Assembly (NCBI GenBank): GCA_937924775.1
Contig: CALDUT010000004.1
Coordinates: 124,001 to 188,000 of the forward strand
Direction: 5' to 3'
DNA: 64,000 bases
DNA from: an uncultured Gemmata sp.
Lineage (GTDB): Bacteria; Planctomycetota; Planctomycetia; Gemmatales; Gemmataceae
The notes under the pieces were generated by a model that was not told where the DNA came from, did no database searches, and was given only the letters and a program-made list of their open reading frames with translations. Shown here piece by piece: positions 1,297 through 48,938 of the stretch. Numbering within the stretch: the stretch's first letter is position 1; every line of letters begins with the position of its first letter. Made by a program: the position numbers and the translations under genes.

Positions 1297-3456
1297 CTAC
1301 TTCGCCGGCAGCATGGGGGCCGGCTGAGCAGCGATTTTGAGTTTCTCCAGGGTGGCTTTGGCTGCGGCCAGTTCCGCGGTGGCGGCGTCGAGGGCGGCTT
1401 TGGCGGTGGCAACTTCCGCGGTGGCGGCGTCGAGGGCGGCTTTGGCCGGGGCCACGGCGTCGGTCGCGGGCTTGACCATCGGCATCAACTCCGCGACTTT
1501 CTTTTGATTCGCCGCCACTTGGGCCATGGCCTCGGTGTAGGTTTTGAAGTGGAGGGCGAATTGCTCTTGCGCGGCTTTGAGCGTGGCCGCGGCGTCGGTG
1601 GCCGATTTTTTGGCCTTGTCGAGTTCGCTGGTGAGTGCGGTGAGAGTGTCGGCCTTCTTTTTGGAGATGGCGGCCAGTTCGGCATTCTCTGGGGTTTTGG
1701 CGGCGGCTTCTGCCAGTGCTTTCGCTGCTGCAGTTTCCGCATTCACAAGCACTTCGAGCGCGGCGGCTTTGTCGGCGGCGGTTTTGGCGAGCGGGGCGGC
1801 TTGATCGGCGGCGGCTTTGGCCGCGTCCATTTGCGCTTTGGCCGCGGTGGCGGTGGCAGTGGCGTCGGTCACGATTTTTTGCGCCGCGGCCAGTTCCGCA
1901 TTGATCTTGTTCAGATTCGCGACAGCCGCGGTGTGAGTGTCGGTTGCGGTTTTGGCTTTCTGAACGGCCGCATCGTAAGCGGCTTGCGCGGTATTCACTT
2001 TCGTTTGCACGGCCGTGAACGTGGCTTCGGCCTGCTTGAGCCGTTCGGCCGCCGATGACGGGTTGGCGTCGAACGTGGCGACGACTTTGGCGTCGGCGGT
2101 GGCCCACGCTTTCACCGTGCCGCTCCAATCGCCCGCGATGACCCGGGCGTTATCGTGCGTGACCGCGACACGCAGCCCCAGATCCGGGAGGGCTTCGAAC
2201 GTCTTCTGGGCGGCCCCGTTTTGGTCCCACAGTTTGGTGATTTTGTCGCGGCCGGTGGTGGCGAGTTTGCCATCGTGGGTGAACCGGACCGACGCCGTAC
2301 CGCCCGGGTGCGCGTTCCAGCTTTTCAGTTGCGTGCCGTTTTCCATCTCCCACAACCGCACGGTGGTATCTTCGCTGGCGGTGGCCAGAACGTTTGAATC
2401 GTCTCGCCACGACACATCGGTGATCATCGCCGTATGACCGCGGAGGGCGTAGAACTCCCGCCCGGTGAAGGCTTCCCAGACAAACACGCCACCGTTGCGG
2501 TCGCCGGTGGCCAAGAGCACACCATCGGGGCTGAATTCCACCGCGGTTACCCAATCGGTGTGTTTTTTGATTTCGTGAACGACAGAACCATCGGCTGTGG
2601 AGTAGACCCGCACAATCTTCGACGGACTGCCGACCGCGATCAGCGTTTGGTCTGCGGAAATGTCGGCGGCGAGAATGGCGTCGTTTTCAATGCCGACTTC
2701 GAGAACCTTCTCACCGGTTTCAATTTTGTACAGGACCGCTTTCCCGGATTGTCCGCCGCGGCCACCGGCCACCAGCAGCAACTTCGCATTGCGGGAAAAC
2801 CGAAGGCTGTGAATTTGCCCGTGTTCGAAGGGCAAAAAGCCGAGGAGTTCACCGGTTTCGGTGTGGTAGAGGATCACCTGCTTCTGCCCGCCGACGGCTA
2901 CCAGTGGCGCCCACGGGCTGGCTGCCAGGGCGAGAATCGCCCCGGGGCGACGGGCACGGACCGGCGGATCGAGCTTCAGTTGCCCGGGTTGCGGCATCGG
3001 CGGCGGTCCCTCGGGCCGACCTCGGACGAGGGATTTCAAGCCGATGTCGGTATTTTTGGGGGTGACCACCACTTTGCTAGCGGCGTTTTGCCGAGCCCCC
3101 TGTTCGATCCACAGTTTGATGATGGCCAGTTTGTCGTCGGGCATCTTGTTGCCGCTGGGGGGCATTTTCGGCTCTTCGAGGTGGGCCGAAAGCGTGTAAA
3201 TCCGCGATCCCGATGGATCACCGGGCTTGACTACCGCCCCGGAGGAGCCGCCCTGATTCATCGCGGCATAGCTGGCGAGGTTGAGATCGCCTTTCTGCTT
3301 GTCGTTTCCGTGACAGTTGATGCAGTGTTGTTTGACGATGGGCAGAATATCGTCGTCGTAGGTGGGGTTTTTGGCGTCGGCGAGCAACCGGGATTGACCC
3401 GCAAGGCTGCCCAACGCCATGGCCCAACCAAGGAATTTGCAGACCATCCGATTCAT
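1297..3456 (-). CDS. WD40-repeat protein with N-terminal cytochrome c domain and Ala-rich coiled-coil tail
   Basis: Last gene of a four-gene minus-strand operon. The 719-residue product has a signal peptide (about residues 1-26), then a planctomycete-type c-cytochrome segment with CINCH at 45-49, and a WD40 beta-propeller from roughly 170 to 450 (for example VTAVEFSPDG, ATASEDTTVRLWE). The last 250 residues are Ala/Lys/Thr-rich coiled coil ending in near-identical 14-residue repeats (AKAALDAATAEVAT and AKAALDAATAELAA). The product should be exported and may bind haem. The start at 3456 has GAGG about 11 bases upstream. The fused tail is unusual; cytochrome-WD40 proteins are common in planctomycetes but their function is not established. 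Confidence 0.85.
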   Translation of the reverse strand: MNRMVCKFLGWAMALGSLAGQSRLLADAKNPTYDDDILPIVKQHCINCHGNDKQKGDLNLASYAAMNQGGSSGAVVKPGDPSGSRIYTLSAHLEEPKMPPSGNKMPDDKLAIIKLWIEQGARQNAASKVVVTPKNTDIGLKSLVRGRPEGPPPMPQPGQLKLDPPVRARRPGAILALAASPWAPLVAVGGQKQVILYHTETGELLGFLPFEHGQIHSLRFSRNAKLLLVAGGRGGQSGKAVLYKIETGEKVLEVGIENDAILAADISADQTLIAVGSPSKIVRVYSTADGSVVHEIKKHTDWVTAVEFSPDGVLLATGDRNGGVFVWEAFTGREFYALRGHTAMITDVSWRDDSNVLATASEDTTVRLWEMENGTQLKSWNAHPGGTASVRFTHDGKLATTGRDKITKLWDQNGAAQKTFEALPDLGLRVAVTHDNARVIAGDWSGTVKAWATADAKVVATFDANPSSAAERLKQAEATFTAVQTKVNTAQAAYDAAVQKAKTATDTHTAAVANLNKINAELAAAQKIVTDATATATAAKAQMDAAKAAADQAAPLAKTAADKAAALEVLVNAETAAAKALAEAAAKTPENAELAAISKKKADTLTALTSELDKAKKSATDAAATLKAAQEQFALHFKTYTEAMAQVAANQKKVAELMPMVKPATDAVAPAKAALDAATAEVATAKAALDAATAELAAAKATLEKLKIAAQPAPMLPAK

Positions 3457-3528
3457 TCTGAAATCCTCACCAATGTTCGCTCGGGGTGGACTCGGGGTGC
3501 GAGCCGCCAGGATCGACCGATGGTTTGA

Positions 3529-5946
3529 TCAGTGATTGAACATGAACTCCCGGGAGTTCAGAATAGCCCAGAAAACGTCTTCGAGGGCTTGCTGTTTATT
3601 GGGCGATTGATCGACCAACGACAGTAGCCGTTCGAGTTCCTCGGCTTTCGGCGGGCGGGTGAGGGCGCGGATGTACAAGTATTCGATAATCTGCGCCGGG
3701 GTTTTCTTTTCTTGCAGCAACTTGCCGACAATGTTGCCTTCGCGAATCTTCGGTTCGACGGTGTTGCCGTTGAGCAAATGCAGGCTTTGCGACAGGGTCG
3801 GTTCGAGGCGGACTTCACAGGAACAAACACTTTCGCGTGTGGGGCGGCCGAAAGTGGTCAGGAAGTAGGTGGTGGTAGAACCATCGGCGATTTGCACAGC
3901 CCGGGCTCCCAAGGGCAGACCGACGAACTTGTTCTTGGTGTTGGTCACCTGGGTGATGATGTCGAGCATGGTTTCTGCGCGGATGCGGCGAATCGGACCG
4001 CGGGCGAAGTTACGCGTGTCGTTTTCATTGGTCGGAGTGGTGGCCGTGCTGCGCTGGTAGGTCTGCGAGGTGCAGATGTCCTTCACCAGTTTCTTGAAGT
4101 CGTACTTGTATTCGGTGAAGCGTTTGCCGAGTTCGTCCAGCAGTTCCTGATTACTGGCGGGATTGGAGATCCGCACATCATCGACCGGGTCGATAATGCC
4201 TTGGCCAAAGAAGTGATTCCACACGATATTGGCGAGATTTTTGGCAAAGTACGGGTTATCGGGGCTGGCTAGCCATTGAGCCAGCACTTCACGGCGGTCT
4301 TTACCAGCCACATCGGCTTCCACGCCGCCGAGGAATTTCGGCTTCATGGGCCGGCGATGGACTGGGTGGTTCACCTCACCACCGCCGCTATTGAAGATCA
4401 CCACTTCCCGCGGATCGTCCGCGGCTTTGCGGCCCACTTGTGTGAAGAAGCTGGCGAAGCCGTAGTAGTCGTCCATGGTCCAGCGGTCAAAGGGGTGGTT
4501 GTGACACTGGGCGCACTGAATCCGCATGCCCATGAACACCTGGGCGACATTTTCCGTGATTTTCAGCACATCGCGTTCGATCTGATAGTAGTTCGTGGCC
4601 GGGTTTTTGAACGTGCCGCCGCTGGCGCTGAGTAGTTCTTTGACCCATTCGTTGGTGGGTATGTTCCGAGCGATCTTGTCTTGCAGCCAATTGTAGTACA
4701 GCAACATGGCTTTGTAGCTGACCTGGTTCGACGAGCGGATTTGCAGCAACTCGGCCCACTTCAGCACCCATAATTCTGCGAATTCCTTGCGATCAAGCAG
4801 TTCGTCGATGAGCAATTCGCGTTTGTTGGGCAGTGTGGACACCATGAAGCGGGCGTACTCATCCGGCGTGGGCAGTTGCCCAGTGATGTCGAGATAGACG
4901 CGACGGATGAAGGTGGAGTCGTCGCAGGAGCCGCTCGGTTCGATGCGGAGTTTCTTGAGTTTGGCGTTGACGAGGGTATCGATATAGTTGTTTTCCGGCG
5001 GGTTTTTCCATTCAAACTGCAAGCCTTTGGGCAGGGTGATGAAGGGTACACCGATGGTGAAGGTGTGGAAGCGGGCCATGATGAAGGCTTCCCCGCGTTC
5101 ACCGGCGGTGACGGTGCCATCGCCCTCGGCGGCGATTTTGGCCACGGTATCGTTATTGCTCAAAAACAGCGCCAACGACGTGACGTCGCGATCGGTGCCA
5201 TCTGAATATTTCGCGCGGACAATAATTCGCTGGGTTTCGCCGCGGCCCTCAAGTACCGCCGACGGGGGGAAGACTTCCATACTCACCGGCAGGGCGATAT
5301 CGGGCTTATCGAGCGGGGCTCCGGCTTCGAGCCAACGGATGAGGGTTTGGTGGTATTCGTCGCCGATTTTGATCTTCTGCCCGCCGGTGTGCGGCACCTG
5401 GCCGGTGGCTTTTTCGATCAGCAGGCTTTCGGCAGGCAAGGCGAGATTAATCCGCCGGCCGCTCAGTTCACGGGTGAGTCGGTAGTGGTCGCCTTCGGGG
5501 TCGAAGCCAAACAGCGACAGCCGGAAACCATCTTTGCCACGGGCGGCACCGTGGCAGCCGCCGGCGTTGCAGCCGGCCCGCATGAAAACGGGCATGACGT
5601 CTTGCTTGAAGGAAATGGGCCGGTCGTCTTTCGCTTGGATCACTTTGACCGGGATTGTGACCGTTTGTTCGCCCCAGCGAACGTGCATTTCGGTGGTGCC
5701 GTCGGCTACCGGAAACACGGTGGAGCCTTCGAGTTTCACTAGCGCCGGGTTGGCGAAACTCACTTGAGCCTGAGTCGTCACATCCCGGGTGATGCCGCCG
5801 GGTTGGGTCAGCTGCACGATGAAAGATTGCCGGTCACGGGCGGTTTCGAGGTTGATGTCCGGCGGGTAGACCGCGATGGTCTGGGCCAACGCTGGACACC
5901 AACTCACGACCAGAACACCGAGCGCAAGCAGGTAAGCGAATCGCAT
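3529..5946 (-). CDS. DUF1549/DUF1553 planctomycete cytochrome-like protein
   Basis: Exported 805-residue protein; the start at 5946 is chosen because AGGAGG lies about 10 bases upstream and a signal peptide (MRFAYLLALGVL...ALAQ) begins there, although the frame is open further upstream. An Ig-like N-terminal domain is followed by a haem-like CNAGGCH motif (C126, C131, H132; CX4CH), then DUF1549 with QCAQCHNHPFDRW and DUF1553 toward the C-terminus, including FLTTFGRPTRESVCSCE and the terminal NSREFMFNH. These paired domains are a planctomycete/verrucomicrobial hallmark of unproven function, probably periplasmic redox proteins tied to polymer breakdown. It lies between the PPC-domain gene and the WD40/cytochrome gene, 90 bases from each. 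Confidence 0.88.
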   Translation of the reverse strand: MRFAYLLALGVLVVSWCPALAQTIAVYPPDINLETARDRQSFIVQLTQPGGITRDVTTQAQVSFANPALVKLEGSTVFPVADGTTEMHVRWGEQTVTIPVKVIQAKDDRPISFKQDVMPVFMRAGCNAGGCHGAARGKDGFRLSLFGFDPEGDHYRLTRELSGRRINLALPAESLLIEKATGQVPHTGGQKIKIGDEYHQTLIRWLEAGAPLDKPDIALPVSMEVFPPSAVLEGRGETQRIIVRAKYSDGTDRDVTSLALFLSNNDTVAKIAAEGDGTVTAGERGEAFIMARFHTFTIGVPFITLPKGLQFEWKNPPENNYIDTLVNAKLKKLRIEPSGSCDDSTFIRRVYLDITGQLPTPDEYARFMVSTLPNKRELLIDELLDRKEFAELWVLKWAELLQIRSSNQVSYKAMLLYYNWLQDKIARNIPTNEWVKELLSASGGTFKNPATNYYQIERDVLKITENVAQVFMGMRIQCAQCHNHPFDRWTMDDYYGFASFFTQVGRKAADDPREVVIFNSGGGEVNHPVHRRPMKPKFLGGVEADVAGKDRREVLAQWLASPDNPYFAKNLANIVWNHFFGQGIIDPVDDVRISNPASNQELLDELGKRFTEYKYDFKKLVKDICTSQTYQRSTATTPTNENDTRNFARGPIRRIRAETMLDIITQVTNTKNKFVGLPLGARAVQIADGSTTTYFLTTFGRPTRESVCSCEVRLEPTLSQSLHLLNGNTVEPKIREGNIVGKLLQEKKTPAQIIEYLYIRALTRPPKAEELERLLSLVDQSPNKQQALEDVFWAILNSREFMFNH

Positions 5947-40902: not shown

Positions 40903-40997
40903 CCGCGGCTCCAGTCATCCACGCAAAGGACAAGGCCCCGAGGGGGGGCCAGCGGAGTGGCGTTACCCGGCGTTCGTCGCAGCCAGTCATCCCTACG

Positions 40998-41333
40998 GCG
41001 GATGTGGCCCAAGCTTTCTCCTGGGCCACGCTCACGCCTTGGCTGGGCAACACACCGAGCGTCGCGCTACGACACTACGTTGACCCAACAGAAGCGGCCT
41101 TCGACCGGGCCTTGGAGTGGATGCCGAAAAGCGGCGTACTGGAGGCGCAAAAAGCGGCGCAGCAGGAGCCGGACCCAAGTTGCACAGAATCGCAAGTATC
41201 GCCGGAAGCTCTTGGGCTTTGCAAGTCTATGCAACTTGATGCTTTTCGTAAGTCCTTGCTGCATAACGACTTACGGGAGTGTATCGGAATCGAACCGACA
41301 GGGAGCGTTGTTCACACCCCCCACGGGTTTTGA
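40998..41333 (+). pseudogene. C-terminal remnant of a tyrosine recombinase (integrase)
   Basis: The plus-strand frame reads PWLGNTPSVALRHYVDPTE followed by FDRALEW, which matches the end of phage-type integrases in planctomycetes (W-x-GNT-x(4)-L-x-HY), including the nucleophile Tyr (codon at 41076). The conserved Arg and His-x-x-Arg of the catalytic core and the whole N-terminal part are missing; the sequence just upstream is unrelated. The frame ends inside the 3' half of tRNA-Sec, the usual arrangement for integrases that use a tRNA gene as att site. A truncated, non-functional fragment. Confidence 0.7.
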
Positions 41334-41368
41334 AGACCCGGGCCAACACCAGTTGTGCAAACACTCCC
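41274..41368 (-). tRNA. selC: tRNA-Sec (anticodon UCA)
   Basis: On the minus strand the RNA begins GGGAGTGT, which pairs with ACACTCCC at the 3' end: an 8-base-pair acceptor stem. The T arm is 5 bp (GTCGG / CCGAT) around TTCGATT, giving the 8+5 architecture of bacterial tRNA-Sec. The anticodon arm CGGGT-CTTCAAA-ACCCG has anticodon TCA, which reads UGA. A long variable arm (GGGGGTGT / ACGCTCCC, 8 bp) follows. Discriminator base G73 is present and CCA is not encoded. About 95 nt. A TACAAT -10-like box lies upstream (41382-41387). It implies selenocysteine insertion in this organism. Confidence 0.93.
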
Positions 41369-41761
41369 AACTCACACCGCTATTGTAATCGGCTCTGGTG
41401 GCGATGGGTAGAAGCCGCGTCATGCCTCCCTCCTTGGATTTTCACGACGTCGGTGGGTCTGCGGTGGTCTGTTCCTTCGATGGGGAGAAGCCGCTTTCTG
41501 CTTCCTGCCCGGGATTTTTCACCCACCATCACATAGCCATGAAGGGGGCTTCTGCGTGCCATTGTTTGAAGTGCCGTGCGGTAGTAACATCAAGCTTTTG
41601 TAACCTTCTGCGTACCTCCTGGCACAACACCCCCGCGAACGGGACTAAACCCGATCGCCCGTTCGCGTTCGATTCCTCTGCCAACCGTCCGGTTTGTGAA
41701 TTTGTCCGGGTCTCTGCCAAATTCCTACACTGCTGGAAAAGGAGGAACGGAGGGCGACGCT
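41369..41761. other. Leader region before hemF, with a stem-loop
   Basis: No supportable gene in about 390 bases. Near the tRNA it holds the tRNA-Sec promoter candidate (TACAAT at 41382-41387, minus strand). A perfect 9-base inverted repeat, GCGAACGGG (41635-41643) / CCCGTTCGC (41658-41666), with a 14-base loop, lies about 95 bases before hemF and could be a leader hairpin. Confidence 0.45.
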
Positions 41762-42646
41762 ATGCACGAACAAGCGGTGGCGTTTTTTCGCGATTTACAA
41801 GATCGGATTTGTGCCGCATTGGAACGGGTCGATGGCGGGGCGGCCTTTCGTGAAGACAGTTGGCAGCGGCCCGGCGGCGGTGGCGGACGAACCCGAGTGA
41901 TTGAGAACGGGGCTGTCTTCGAGAAAGGCGGGGTGAATTTCTCTGAGGTTTTTGGCGAATTCAGCCCTGAGTTCGCCCAACAAATCCCCGGGGATGGCTT
42001 GGCGTTCACGGCCACCGGGGTTTCTCTCGTGATCCATCCCCGCAGTCCGCTGGTGCCCACGGTGCATGCGAATTTCCGCTATTTGACCCACGGTCGCAGG
42101 GCGTGGTTTGGTGGCGGCGGCGATCTGACCCCGTATTACCCGTTCAAAGAGGATGTCATTCACTTCCACAAAGTGTGGAAGCGGGTCTGCGAAACCCACG
42201 CGAATGTGGCCAATTATGCCCAGATGAAACACGATTGCGACGAATACTTCTTCCTCAAGCACCGTAACGAAGCCCGCGGTGTCGGCGGCATTTTCTTCGA
42301 CTACATGGATGCGACCGAAGCCGCGTTCGCTTTCGTCCGCGACGCCGGCAACGCCTTCCTCGACGCCTATGTTCCCATTGTGGAACGCCGCAAAGGACTG
42401 ACCTACACCCCCGAACAGCGGTTTTTTCAGGAATATCGCCGTGGCCGCTATGTGGAATTCAACCTCATCTACGACCGCGGCACAGTCTTTGGCCTGAAGA
42501 CGGACGGCCGCACGGAAAGTATCCTGATGAGCCTGCCGCCGGTGGTCCGTTACATCTACGACTACAAACCGGCCCCCGGCACACCCGAAGCGGAACTGAC
42601 CGAGTACTGGCTGAAACCCCAGGATTGGGCGGCGATGAGCGAATAG
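41762..42646 (+). CDS. hemF: Oxygen-dependent coproporphyrinogen III oxidase
   Basis: 294 residues; start at 41762 with GGAGGAACGGAGG just upstream. HemF family blocks: GGGRTRVIENGAVFEKGGVN, SLVIHPRSPLVPTVHANFRY, the WFGGGGDLTPYYP signature, GVGGIFFDYMD, YVEFNLIYDRGTVFGLKTDGRTESILMSLPP. It converts coproporphyrinogen III to protoporphyrinogen IX with O2, two decarboxylations in the cytoplasm, for haem synthesis. It shows the organism is aerobic. It stands alone here. Confidence 0.97.
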   Translation: MHEQAVAFFRDLQDRICAALERVDGGAAFREDSWQRPGGGGGRTRVIENGAVFEKGGVNFSEVFGEFSPEFAQQIPGDGLAFTATGVSLVIHPRSPLVPTVHANFRYLTHGRRAWFGGGGDLTPYYPFKEDVIHFHKVWKRVCETHANVANYAQMKHDCDEYFFLKHRNEARGVGGIFFDYMDATEAAFAFVRDAGNAFLDAYVPIVERRKGLTYTPEQRFFQEYRRGRYVEFNLIYDRGTVFGLKTDGRTESILMSLPPVVRYIYDYKPAPGTPEAELTEYWLKPQDWAAMSE

Positions 42647-46201: not shown

Positions 46202-46332
46202 GGAGTGTTCACCTGAAAGAAAGGAGTGTTCACTTTCTGATCAGACCATTTGCAACAGTTAACGCGTTGTGGATCTGGGCACACATCCGATGCTTTTCGG
46301 AGTGTTCACTTTCTGATCGAATCACTTGCAAC
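46202..46332. repeat. 34-base direct repeats upstream of the orphan DUF1549 gene
   Basis: The sequence GGAGTGTTCACTTTCTGATC plus a variable centre and TTGCAAC occurs at 46223-46256 and 46299-46332 (34 bases each, 4 differences). A partial copy, GGAGTGTTCACCTGAAAGAA, lies at 46202-46221, and a degenerate GTCCACTTTTTCTGAAAG near 46012-46031. No open reading frame is associated. Iterated ends of this kind are seen in some insertion sequence families (for example IS21), but could also be repeated regulatory sites for the gene at 46428. Confidence 0.6.
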
Positions 46333-46427
46333 GGGAGCGAATTTCCGCGACAATCAGTGTACCTGCCTTGAGACGTGCTGGCACTGACGCGGCACGACCT
46401 GCCTATTACCCGCGAGGGTCTCATCCC

Positions 46428-48938
46428 ATGTTGAAGTTCGTCCGCTGCGGAGCGGTGGTTGCGTTTGCTCTGTTCGCTCTGGCCGTCGGGGCTTCTGCTT
46501 TGTCGGCGGCGGAAGTGAAAAGTATTGCGGTTTACCCTGAGAAAGTGAGCCTCACCGGGGCCGACGATGCCGCGCAGTTGATCGTGACCGCGACCCACGC
46601 CAACGGTCGGCTATCCGATCTGACCCATCGGGCCAGTTACGCCATCGCCGATGGCCGCTCGGCCGAGGTGCTCGCCGGTGGGCGTGTCGTGCCGCGGGCT
46701 AACGGCCAGACGGAGATCGTCGTGACTTACGACGGCCACTCGGTTCGCGTGCCACTGGTGGTACAGAGCGTCGATGAGAACTTGCCTCTGAACTTCACCA
46801 ATCAGGTGGTGCCGGTGTTCACCAAGCTGGGTTGTAACAGCGGTGGTTGCCACGGAAAATTGGCCGGCCAGAACGGTTTTCGGCTTTCGTTATTAGGTTT
46901 TGAACCCGAGTTGGACTACACGACGCTAGTCAAGGAAGGCCGTGGGCGGCGTTTGTTTCCCGCGAACCCAGACGCCAGCTTGTTTTTGATGAAGGCGACT
47001 GGCCGCTCCCCGCACGGCGGCGGCAAGAAGATGGACCCGGCGTCGGAAGAGTACAAGTTGGTTCGTCGCTGGATCGCCGCCGGGATGCCGTGGGGGCAAG
47101 ACACCGACCCGAAGGTGACGCACATCCGGGTTTACCCCGAACATCGTGTTCTGAGCCGTCACAGCCAGCAGCAGTTTGCCGTATATGCGCATTACAGCAA
47201 TGGTCGGATTGAAGACATCACCCGCCGGGCGCAATACGAGAGCAACGATTCAGAAATTGCTACCGTCGATGACCGTGGGTTGATTACGACTTTGGGTTTG
47301 AGTGGCGAAGCGGCCATCATGGCCCGCTATCAGGGCATGGTTGCGGTGGTTCGTATCACAGTGCCGTTGGGGGTGGAAACGCCATCGTGGAGTTTCCCGG
47401 AACAAACCATCGTCGATCGTTTCACCGCCAAAAAGTGGAAGGAACTCGGTCTGGTGCCCAGCGAACGGTGCAGCGATGAGCAATTCATCCGCCGCGTCTT
47501 TATCGACATCACCGGCACACTGCCGACACCACGGCAAGTCCTCGATTTTGTCGCCAATCCTGATTTGGCCAAACGTGACAAGCTCATTGACCAACTGTTG
47601 GATTCTCCCGAATACGCTTACTACTTCGCCAACAAATGGGCCGATATTCTTCGCGTCAAGCGGCGGCAGCAGACAGAACGGGCTGCGGGCACATTCGCCT
47701 TCCATGACTGGATTCGTGAACAGATGGCCCAGGACACACCCTACAGCGACTTTGTGCGGGCTATCCTGACAGCCAGCGGCGACGAGCGAACCTCCCCGCC
47801 CAGCGTGTGGTATAAGGAAATCGAAAAAGCCGAGAACTTCGTGGATGATGTCAGCCAGGTATTCCTCGGCCAGCGTTTGACCTGCGCGAATTGCCACCAC
47901 CACCCTTACGAGAAATGGAGCCAGGACGACTACTGGGGTATGGCCGCGTTCTTTGCCCGGGTGGGGCGGAAGGAAGTGCGGTCGCGGGTGGCCGATCCCA
48001 ACCGGCCGGATAATCGCGTGCAGGTCGTTTACGTTCGCCCGCTGGGAAGTTTGAACAACAAACGCACCGGCCAACCAGCCGCCCCCCAACCCCTCGAGGC
48101 TGAGCCGCTAACCATCCCCGCCGATAAGGACCCGCGGCACTTGCTGGTGGACTGGATGGTTGATCCGAAGAACCCATTTTTTGCCAAAACGGTGGTCAAC
48201 CGGTACTGGGCCCACTTCTTCGGTCGCGGGATTGTCGATCCGCTCGACGACATGCGGATTACCAACCCCCCGAGCAACTTGGAGTTGCTTGAGGCCCTAG
48301 CCCAGCACTTCATCACCAAGAACTTCCGCCTCAAGGAACTCATCAAAACCATCTGTAAAAGCCGGACGTACCAACTCAGCAGCACCCCCAACGAATTCAA
48401 CAAGCACGATAAGCAAACCTATGCCCGCTACTACCCCAAACGGCTGACGGCTGAGGTGCTGCTGGATGCCGTGGGCCAAGTCACCGATAGCCCCACCCGT
48501 TTTGGTGGGCTGCCGCAGGATAAGAACGCTCCCACCCGGGCCATCATGTTGCCCGATGAATCGTTCGCGTCGTACTTCCTCGATGTTTTTGGCCGCCCGC
48601 AGCGGATCAGTGCCTGCGAGTGCGAACGGGTCAGCGAGGCCAACCTCGCCGCGGTTTTACATCTTCTCAATAGCGACGAAGTGCAAGGCAAAATCGCCCG
48701 CCCCGGTGGCCGGGCCGACCAACTCGCCAAACCCGACGACAAACGCAGCGATGCCGACAAGGTGACAGAACTGTTCCTGTGGGCGTTCGCCCGCAAACCC
48801 ACGGCCGACGATCTGGCGACCGCGTTGGACCATATCCGCGCGATGGAAGCCAAATCCGGGGCCGCTGGCAAGAAAATCGCCTACGAAAACATCCTCTGGG
48901 CTTTGATCAACACCAAAGAATTCGTGTTTAACCAATAA
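46428..48938 (+). CDS. DUF1549/DUF1553 planctomycete cytochrome-like protein, orphan copy
   Basis: 836-residue exported protein, paralogue of the one at 3529-5946 (same order: Ig-like N-terminus, CNSGGCH at C136/C141/H142, a second Ig-like domain, DUF1549 with TCANCHHHPYEKW including CANCH at about 486-490, DUF1553 with SYFLDVFGRPQRISACECE, ending NTKEFVFNQ). The signal peptide MLKFVRCGAVVAFALFALAVG is at the start chosen, 46428. Unlike the first copy it has no DUF1501, PPC or WD40 partner next to it. Upstream lie the 34-base repeats. Confidence 0.88.
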   Translation: MLKFVRCGAVVAFALFALAVGASALSAAEVKSIAVYPEKVSLTGADDAAQLIVTATHANGRLSDLTHRASYAIADGRSAEVLAGGRVVPRANGQTEIVVTYDGHSVRVPLVVQSVDENLPLNFTNQVVPVFTKLGCNSGGCHGKLAGQNGFRLSLLGFEPELDYTTLVKEGRGRRLFPANPDASLFLMKATGRSPHGGGKKMDPASEEYKLVRRWIAAGMPWGQDTDPKVTHIRVYPEHRVLSRHSQQQFAVYAHYSNGRIEDITRRAQYESNDSEIATVDDRGLITTLGLSGEAAIMARYQGMVAVVRITVPLGVETPSWSFPEQTIVDRFTAKKWKELGLVPSERCSDEQFIRRVFIDITGTLPTPRQVLDFVANPDLAKRDKLIDQLLDSPEYAYYFANKWADILRVKRRQQTERAAGTFAFHDWIREQMAQDTPYSDFVRAILTASGDERTSPPSVWYKEIEKAENFVDDVSQVFLGQRLTCANCHHHPYEKWSQDDYWGMAAFFARVGRKEVRSRVADPNRPDNRVQVVYVRPLGSLNNKRTGQPAAPQPLEAEPLTIPADKDPRHLLVDWMVDPKNPFFAKTVVNRYWAHFFGRGIVDPLDDMRITNPPSNLELLEALAQHFITKNFRLKELIKTICKSRTYQLSSTPNEFNKHDKQTYARYYPKRLTAEVLLDAVGQVTDSPTRFGGLPQDKNAPTRAIMLPDESFASYFLDVFGRPQRISACECERVSEANLAAVLHLLNSDEVQGKIARPGGRADQLAKPDDKRSDADKVTELFLWAFARKPTADDLATALDHIRAMEAKSGAAGKKIAYENILWALINTKEFVFNQ

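What the first reader, a model, noticed from the sequence alone, without database searches (positions are those of the whole stretch)
41274..41368. A selenocysteine tRNA gene in a planctomycete segment
The minus-strand structure has an 8-bp acceptor, 5-bp T stem, 8-bp variable arm, anticodon UCA and G73, all seen directly; these are the established identity features of tRNA-Sec. It predicts that this organism inserts selenocysteine at UGA, so some genes here or elsewhere that appear to end early at UGA may be selenoprotein genes. No selA, selB or selD is present in the window.
Basis: partly seen in the sequence, partly recalled or inferred. Interest (0 to 1): 0.75.

Follow-up and report, generated by a model that had tools for sequence, protein, structure and literature searches.

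The report
Ordinary planctomycete selenocysteine tRNA gene
This is a genuine selenocysteine tRNA gene in a Gemmata-like bacterium that also carries the enzymes and at least two target genes needed to use selenocysteine, a trait already reported for this bacterial group.

Summary
ARAGORN calls tRNA-Sec at exactly 41274-41368 (-), and Rfam tRNA-Sec scores it 72.9 bits against a cut-off of 47. The 8/5 fold, 8-bp variable arm, UCA anticodon and G73 are present. Across 29 planctomycete tRNA-Sec genes (26 distinct), 99.3% of pair cells pair, and 19 of 32 pairs show changes on both sides.

The interpretation also holds. The host genome (4.79 Mb, Gemmata-like) encodes SelB, SelA and SelD, each over its curated cut-off and each on a different contig. 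It holds two strong selenoprotein genes, neither in the window: a SelW-like protein (CxxU) and a SelL-related redox protein (UxxC). Each has an in-frame UGA followed by a hairpin that fits the published bacterial SECIS model.

Selenocysteine use in Gemmata and Isosphaera is already in print (PMC4807772), so this is a new member of a known kind. Two side points carry what novelty there is. The trait here may persist without a selenocysteine-containing FdhA or SelD, and a decayed tyrosine-recombinase gene abuts the tRNA, so selC may once have been an integration site.

The parts
41274..41368 (-). tRNA-Sec gene (selC), 95 nt including G73; CCA not encoded
   Evidence: ARAGORN; Rfam RF01852 72.9 bits; covariation; sequence
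41331..41333 (-). UCA anticodon, which reads UGA
   Evidence: ARAGORN anticodon at position 36; sequence
41274..41274 (-). discriminator base G73
   Evidence: sequence; invariant G in the 29 aligned genes
41696..42646 (+). hemF (coproporphyrinogen III oxidase), neighbour of selC; also next to tRNA-Sec in the near relative G012 (92% identity)
   Evidence: Pfam PF01218 410.2 bits; tblastn
40986..41273 (+). relic of the C-terminal end of a tyrosine recombinase, convergent with and abutting selC; its open frame continues into the antisense of the tRNA and stops at TGA 41331-41333. A neighbour, not part of Sec decoding
   Evidence: translation, ORF ending at 41333, homologues, two full-length homologues hit PF00589

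Best explanation
The locus is selC, the selenocysteine tRNA gene of a Gemmata-like planctomycete. Inferred from established biochemistry: seryl-tRNA synthetase charges it with serine, SelA converts Ser-tRNA to Sec-tRNA using selenophosphate made by SelD, and SelB delivers it to UGA codons that are followed by a SECIS hairpin. Shown here by sequence: the tRNA, SelA, SelB and SelD are present in the genome, dispersed on four contigs. At least two genes (SelW-like and SelL-related) have a conserved in-frame UGA at their redox motif, followed by a hairpin that fits the bacterial SECIS model. Not shown: expression, charging or selenium incorporation.
For: tRNA. Machinery: (own SelB, SelA and SelD over the NCBIfam equivalog cut-offs). 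Of 41 genomes surveyed, 23 pass the cut-off for all three proteins and have a tRNA-Sec above 60 bits, 7 have none of the four, 2 have SelA alone and 9 are otherwise partial (cross-tabulated by hand). SelW-like: 22 of 25 rows have exactly one TGA; the two rows from genomes without Sec genes, G034 and G039, have Cys at that place. In 6 genomes the SelW-like gene lies within 400 bases of SelD on the same strand, and in G036 SelW-like, SelD, SelB, SelA and tRNA-Sec form one cluster of about 5 kb (C184:24632-29790). SelL-related: 180.5 bits against a cut-off of 120; 18 of 19 rows in 18 genomes have one TGA and the other has TGT, Cys. Own SECIS hairpins: SelW 9 bp, loop GUU, 22 nt after UGA, -14.3 kcal/mol, 0 of 300 shuffles as good; SelL 7 bp, loop GGU, 21 nt, -10.0 kcal/mol, 9 of 300. 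Both meet the four published criteria (PMC13188914, passage).
Against: No sigma-70-like promoter or terminator was found around the tRNA (the shuffles give 0.2 and 0.8, and planctomycete promoters may differ). The SelL hairpin is kept in the Cys copy of G017 (L241), and in the 16 loci read 5-33 of 200 mononucleotide shuffles do as well, so there it is weak evidence on its own. Only 12 of the 20 SelW genes I parsed have an isolated hairpin at or below -7.5 kcal/mol. The SelW-like protein passes TIGR02174 but not its best-scoring model NF041051 (79.1 bits, cut-off 88). G023 has a full machinery but a Gly codon (GGT) at the SelW position. G003, G007 and G021 have SelA and SelB but no tRNA-Sec hit at 1e-9, and G020 has UGA in SelW with only SelA found (75% complete). 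The Sec genes of the own genome are not clustered.
Confidence: 0.96

Rival explanations
1. A tRNA-Ser(UGA) or another long-variable-arm tRNA mistaken for tRNA-Sec.
For: tRNA-Ser genes do reach the Rfam tRNA-Sec cut-off: 48.1 bits in this genome (L002 read); hits of 53.2 bits in G025 and G026, of which the G026 gene is called tRNA-Ser (tga).
Against: 72.9 bits, anticodon TCA rather than TGA, 8-bp acceptor, 8-bp variable arm, ARAGORN call as SeC.
Confidence: 0.01
2. A degenerate or orphan selC left after loss of the Sec system.
For: The gene stands apart from selA and selB, next to a decayed integrase; 7 of 41 genomes surveyed lack the whole system.
Against: SelA, SelB, SelD and two UGA genes are intact in the same genome; the stems hold by compensating changes across relatives.
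Confidence: 0.02
3. A UCA suppressor tRNA that reads UGA as something other than selenocysteine.
For: The anticodon alone would allow it.
Against: UGA also serves as an ordinary stop: the PSD1-type gene within 1297-5889 ends at a TGA, at the point where its paralogue at 46326-48938 also ends. SelA and SelB are present, and UGA sits at CxxU and UxxC redox motifs where some homologues have Cys.
Confidence: 0.01

Closest known systems
Bacterial tRNA-Sec (selC), Rfam RF01852
   Same: 8/5 acceptor/T arms, long variable arm, 6-bp D stem, UCA anticodon, G73, full-length model match
   Different: CCA is not encoded. Of the 29 aligned genes, 6 encode CCA, all outside the window's family (0 of 21 within it; read). 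Secmarker reports CCA in 93% of bacterial tRNA-Sec genes (PMC5330540, passage). One extra base in the D stem, A in 26 of 29.
Sec-insertion genes of Gemmata obscuriglobus, Isosphaera pallida and planctomycete P1 (PMC4807772, passages)
   Same: Full Sec-insertion gene set; genes not co-localised, as in P1; no 2-selenouridine synthase, as in G. obscuriglobus and I. pallida (own best hit 24.5 bits against a cut-off of 219.75)
   Different: No Fdh-alpha (TIGR01591) match at 1e-60 in this genome, whereas P1 has a selenocysteine FdhA; the selenoproteins found here are SelW-like and SelL-related

Membership tests
Bacterial tRNA-Sec | Covariance score over the Rfam cut-off | tested here: met
   72.9 against 47 bits
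Bacterial tRNA-Sec | 8/5 acceptor and T arms, long variable arm | tested here: met
   sequence; pair counts
Bacterial tRNA-Sec | UCA anticodon and G73 | tested here: met
   invariant G at the last column of 29 aligned genes
Bacterial tRNA-Sec | Charged by SerRS, converted by SelA, bound by SelB | not testable with these tools
   needs biochemistry
Sec-decoding trait | SelA, SelB and SelD in the genome | tested here: met
Sec-decoding trait | At least one gene with in-frame UGA at a redox motif plus a SECIS-like hairpin | tested here: met
   SelW-like and SelL-related
Selenouridine trait | 2-selenouridine synthase (TIGR03167) | tested here: not met
   own best 24.5 bits, cut-off 219.75
Tyrosine recombinase (relic beside selC) | Phage_integrase domain | tested here: inconclusive
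   The fragment itself has no Pfam hit up to E 0.1; two full-length homologues hit PF00589 at 39.8 and 39.3 bits

The most novel reading that the evidence does not exclude
In Gemmata-like planctomycetes selC serves two roles. It decodes UGA for a small selenoproteome that, in this genome, is kept up by SelW-like and SelL-related proteins without a Sec-containing FdhA or SelD. It has also been an attachment site for a tyrosine-recombinase family whose gene end reads into the target RNA gene and whose relatives sit beside tmRNA and various tRNAs. At selC the recombinase frame ends at the TGA that is the complement of the UCA anticodon.
Probability: 0.4. Interest if true: 0.35.

Novelty: new member of a known kind. 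Interest (0 to 1): 0.2.

Why it matters
Gene callers that treat UGA only as a stop cut selenoprotein genes short, so knowing that this genome very probably decodes UGA as selenocysteine corrects its annotation for at least the SelW-like and SelL-related genes. A survey of 2006 reported that FdhA or SelD was present as a selenoprotein in every selenoprotein-containing organism it examined (PMC1794560, passages). This genome appears to have neither, which would make it a small exception if a full selenoproteome search confirms it.

Tried and rejected
Selenoproteins in the window: two read-through scans. The one candidate with very strong coding signal on both sides (1297-5889) is two tandem genes: PSD1 ends before the TGA and PSCyt1 begins after it, and the paralogue at 46326-48938 ends at the same point. 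The first scan's thresholds would have missed the SelW-like gene, whose upstream score is only 2.1, so the scan was repeated more loosely. The second gave 21 candidates, 1 with a SECIS-like hairpin of -7.5 kcal/mol or better and 0 with both hairpin and redox motif.

Read-through scan of the four fetched own-genome stretches around selB, selA, selD and the SelW-like gene: 5, 5, 3 and 5 candidates; the SelW-like gene was recovered in the last. The others were not followed up.

Other selenoprotein families in the own genome: Fdh-alpha (TIGR01591), none at 1e-60 (weaker matches were not listed); DUF1573, 3 matches, none with an internal stop; AhpC/TSA, 16 matches, one with TGA, which is the SelL-related gene. 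With SelD and SelW these are five families of the roughly 119 that PMC13188914 lists; the search is not exhaustive.

Conserved neighbours of selC: tblastn of six neighbouring proteins and the recombinase fragment against the loci held at that time found, at tRNA-Sec loci of other genomes, only hemF in G012 and the recombinase in G023.

Promoter and terminator scan: nothing found.

Second copy of the tRNA 3' end as a possible att site: none in the window at up to 3 mismatches, so no bounded element is shown.

Papers: searches. (selC as an integration site in planctomycetes) returned no paper; they cover only the held open-access library.

Full report
Observation. Reading the strand gives an 8-bp acceptor, 5-bp T stem, 8-bp variable arm, anticodon loop CTTCAAA and G73. 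I aligned the 29 planctomycete tRNA-Sec genes scoring above 60 bits (26 distinct). I left out the three other rows of that call: the 53.2-bit hits of G025 and G026, and a second 56.1-bit hit in G030 that I did not examine. On this alignment 99.3% of pair cells form standard pairs, 19 of 32 pairs have changes on both sides, and none of 500 shuffles reaches any of the five measures. The alignment was not fitted to the structure, but the structure was drawn from the first row.

A caution on scores. The Rfam cut-off is not specific on its own. A tRNA-Ser(UGA) of the same genome scores 48.1 bits. Two order-level relatives without any Sec protein over cut-off (G025, G026) have hits of 53.2 bits, of which the G026 one is called tRNA-Ser. 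The gene in hand is about 20 bits above these and has the right anticodon.

Organism. The window is C4:124001-188000 of a 4.79-Mb, 27-contig genome of 97% completeness. The nearest named SelA is that of Gemmata sp. SKYG68 (84%), followed by other planctomycetes. 'Planctomycete' is therefore right.

Machinery. The own genome encodes SelB (C10, 410.2 bits), SelA (C1, 567.6) and SelD (C8, 387.9), confirmed one by one. Together with selC on C4 they lie on four different contigs, each well inside its contig (one search gives contig lengths), so they are not clustered. In 41 genomes (own plus 40 relatives) I cross-tabulated the four markers by hand, taking protein cut-offs and a tRNA score above 60 bits. 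This gives 23 with all four, 7 with none (G025, G026, G033, G034, G038, G039, G040), 2 with SelA alone (G020, 75% complete, and G035) and 9 otherwise partial (G003, G007, G010, G016, G018, G021, G022, G030, G032), some of them incomplete assemblies or split genes. Among the partial ones, G003, G007 and G021 have SelA and SelB but no tRNA-Sec hit at 1e-9. The own SelD has Cys at the active position (RAGCAAK), where G028 has UGA. The selenouridine synthase is absent (24.5 bits against a cut-off of 219.75), so SelD here presumably serves selenocysteine alone.

Selenoproteins. The PF10262 search found 25 of 41 genomes with a SelW-like gene; 22 of 25 rows have one TGA. The own gene reads MTIELKYCSVUNYEPRAVSLT..., with a GGAGG just before the start. 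It passes TIGR02174 CXXU_selWTH (65.8 against 34.2 bits) but not the cut-off of its best-scoring model NF041051 (79.1 against 88). Of the three rows without TGA, G034 and G039 have Cys and belong to the genomes with no Sec genes; G023 has GGT (Gly) despite a full machinery, which I cannot explain. In 6 of the 22 genomes with UGA (G019, G028, G029, G030, G031, G036) the SelW-like gene lies within 400 bases of SelD on the same strand. In G036 SelW-like, SelD, SelB, SelA and tRNA-Sec follow each other on C184:24632-29790.

The AhpC/TSA search of the own genome found 16 matches, one with TGA. It is a SelL-related redox protein (NF040769, 180.5 against 120 bits) with the motif FLRHLAUILC. Matches to it were found in 18 of 41 genomes, 19 rows, of which 18 have one TGA; the exception has TGT.

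SECIS. The published bacterial model asks for a 3-9 nt apical loop, 4-16 bp upper stem, a G in the first two loop positions, 16-37 nt from UGA and -7.5 kcal/mol or better (PMC13188914, passage seen). I scored the isolated hairpin, and the shuffles keep base composition only. The own SelW-like gene meets the model with a 9-bp stem, loop GUU at 22 nt and -14.3 kcal/mol; 0 of 300 shuffles did as well. The own SelL-related gene meets it with 7 bp, loop GGU at 21 nt and -10.0 kcal/mol; 9 of 300 shuffles did as well, and 6 of 200 in a second run. Of the 20 SelW genes my script parsed (5 of 25 were missed by its motif and read separately, without a hairpin test), 12 reach -7.5. Of 19 SelL loci, 16 were parsed; all 16 reach -7.5, including the Cys copy, and 5-33 of 200 shuffles match them. 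The hairpins are therefore supporting evidence, strong for the own SelW-like gene and weak for SelL.

The window itself holds no selenoprotein that I could find and no match to the genome's own SelA, SelB, SelD, SelW-like or SelL-related protein at 1e-3.

Surroundings. On the 3' side of the tRNA, convergent with it, lies the decayed C-terminal end of a tyrosine recombinase (frame 40986-41273). Its frame stays open into the antisense of the tRNA and stops at 41331-41333. A search in the 41 genomes found matches at 1e-5 in 17, and 30 of the matches were fetched as loci. In 26 of those 30 ARAGORN sees a tRNA or tmRNA gene in the fetched stretch: 9 tmRNA, 2 tRNA-Sec (own and G023) and 15 other tRNAs, one of them (L194) some 650 bases from the match; 4 have none. 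Two full-length homologues carry PF00589. In G023 the recombinase end and part of the stretch up to the tRNA align with the window, while the last bases before the tRNA differ. I infer that selC was once an integration site; no second copy of the tRNA 3' end is in the window. That selC is an integration hotspot in E. coli is recalled, not taken from a call.

What is known. PMC4807772 (passages) reports full Sec-insertion gene sets in Gemmata obscuriglobus, Isosphaera pallida and two red-alga planctomycetes, with non-co-localised genes in P1. The finding is therefore a well-supported new member of a known kind. [quoted passage not shown] Here SelD is the Cys form and no Fdh-alpha matched at 1e-60, although five rows from relatives do have Fdh-alpha with one TGA (G001, G004, G019, G022, G032). 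This organism may thus be an exception, pending a complete search.

Noticed in passing
window 40986-41333 (+); L168 338-649: Relic of a tyrosine recombinase abutting tRNA-Sec, with its frame running into the tRNA antisense; of 30 homologous loci (own genome and relatives) 26 hold a tRNA or tmRNA gene: 9 tmRNA, 2 tRNA-Sec, 15 other tRNAs.
   Followed up: partly
G000:C10:99331-99546 (L161) and G000:C20:50433-50942 (L219): Two selenoprotein genes, SelW-like and SelL-related, that gene calling without Sec would cut at UGA.
   Followed up: yes
G023:C172:17783-17995 (L196): SelW-like gene with a Gly codon (GGT) where 22 relatives (own genome included) have UGA, although G023 has SelA, SelB, SelD and tRNA-Sec.
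   Followed up: no
G036:C184:24632-29790 (L016, L028, L047, L154): One class-level relative has SelW-like, SelD, SelB, SelA and tRNA-Sec in a single cluster, while the window's genome has the four Sec genes on four contigs. selB and selA are also neighbours in G019, G021, G023, G024, G027, G028, G029 and G031 (coordinates).
   Followed up: partly
window 41274 and the tRNA-Sec loci L039-L066: CCA is not encoded after tRNA-Sec in any of the 21 genes of the window's family, but it is in 5 of 5 genes of family f2 and 1 of 2 in f3 (read).
   Followed up: partly
G017:C1:1979684-1980175 (L241) and G017:C1:2431131-2431604 (L250): One genome carries both a Cys (TGT) and a UGA copy of the SelL-related gene.
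   Followed up: no
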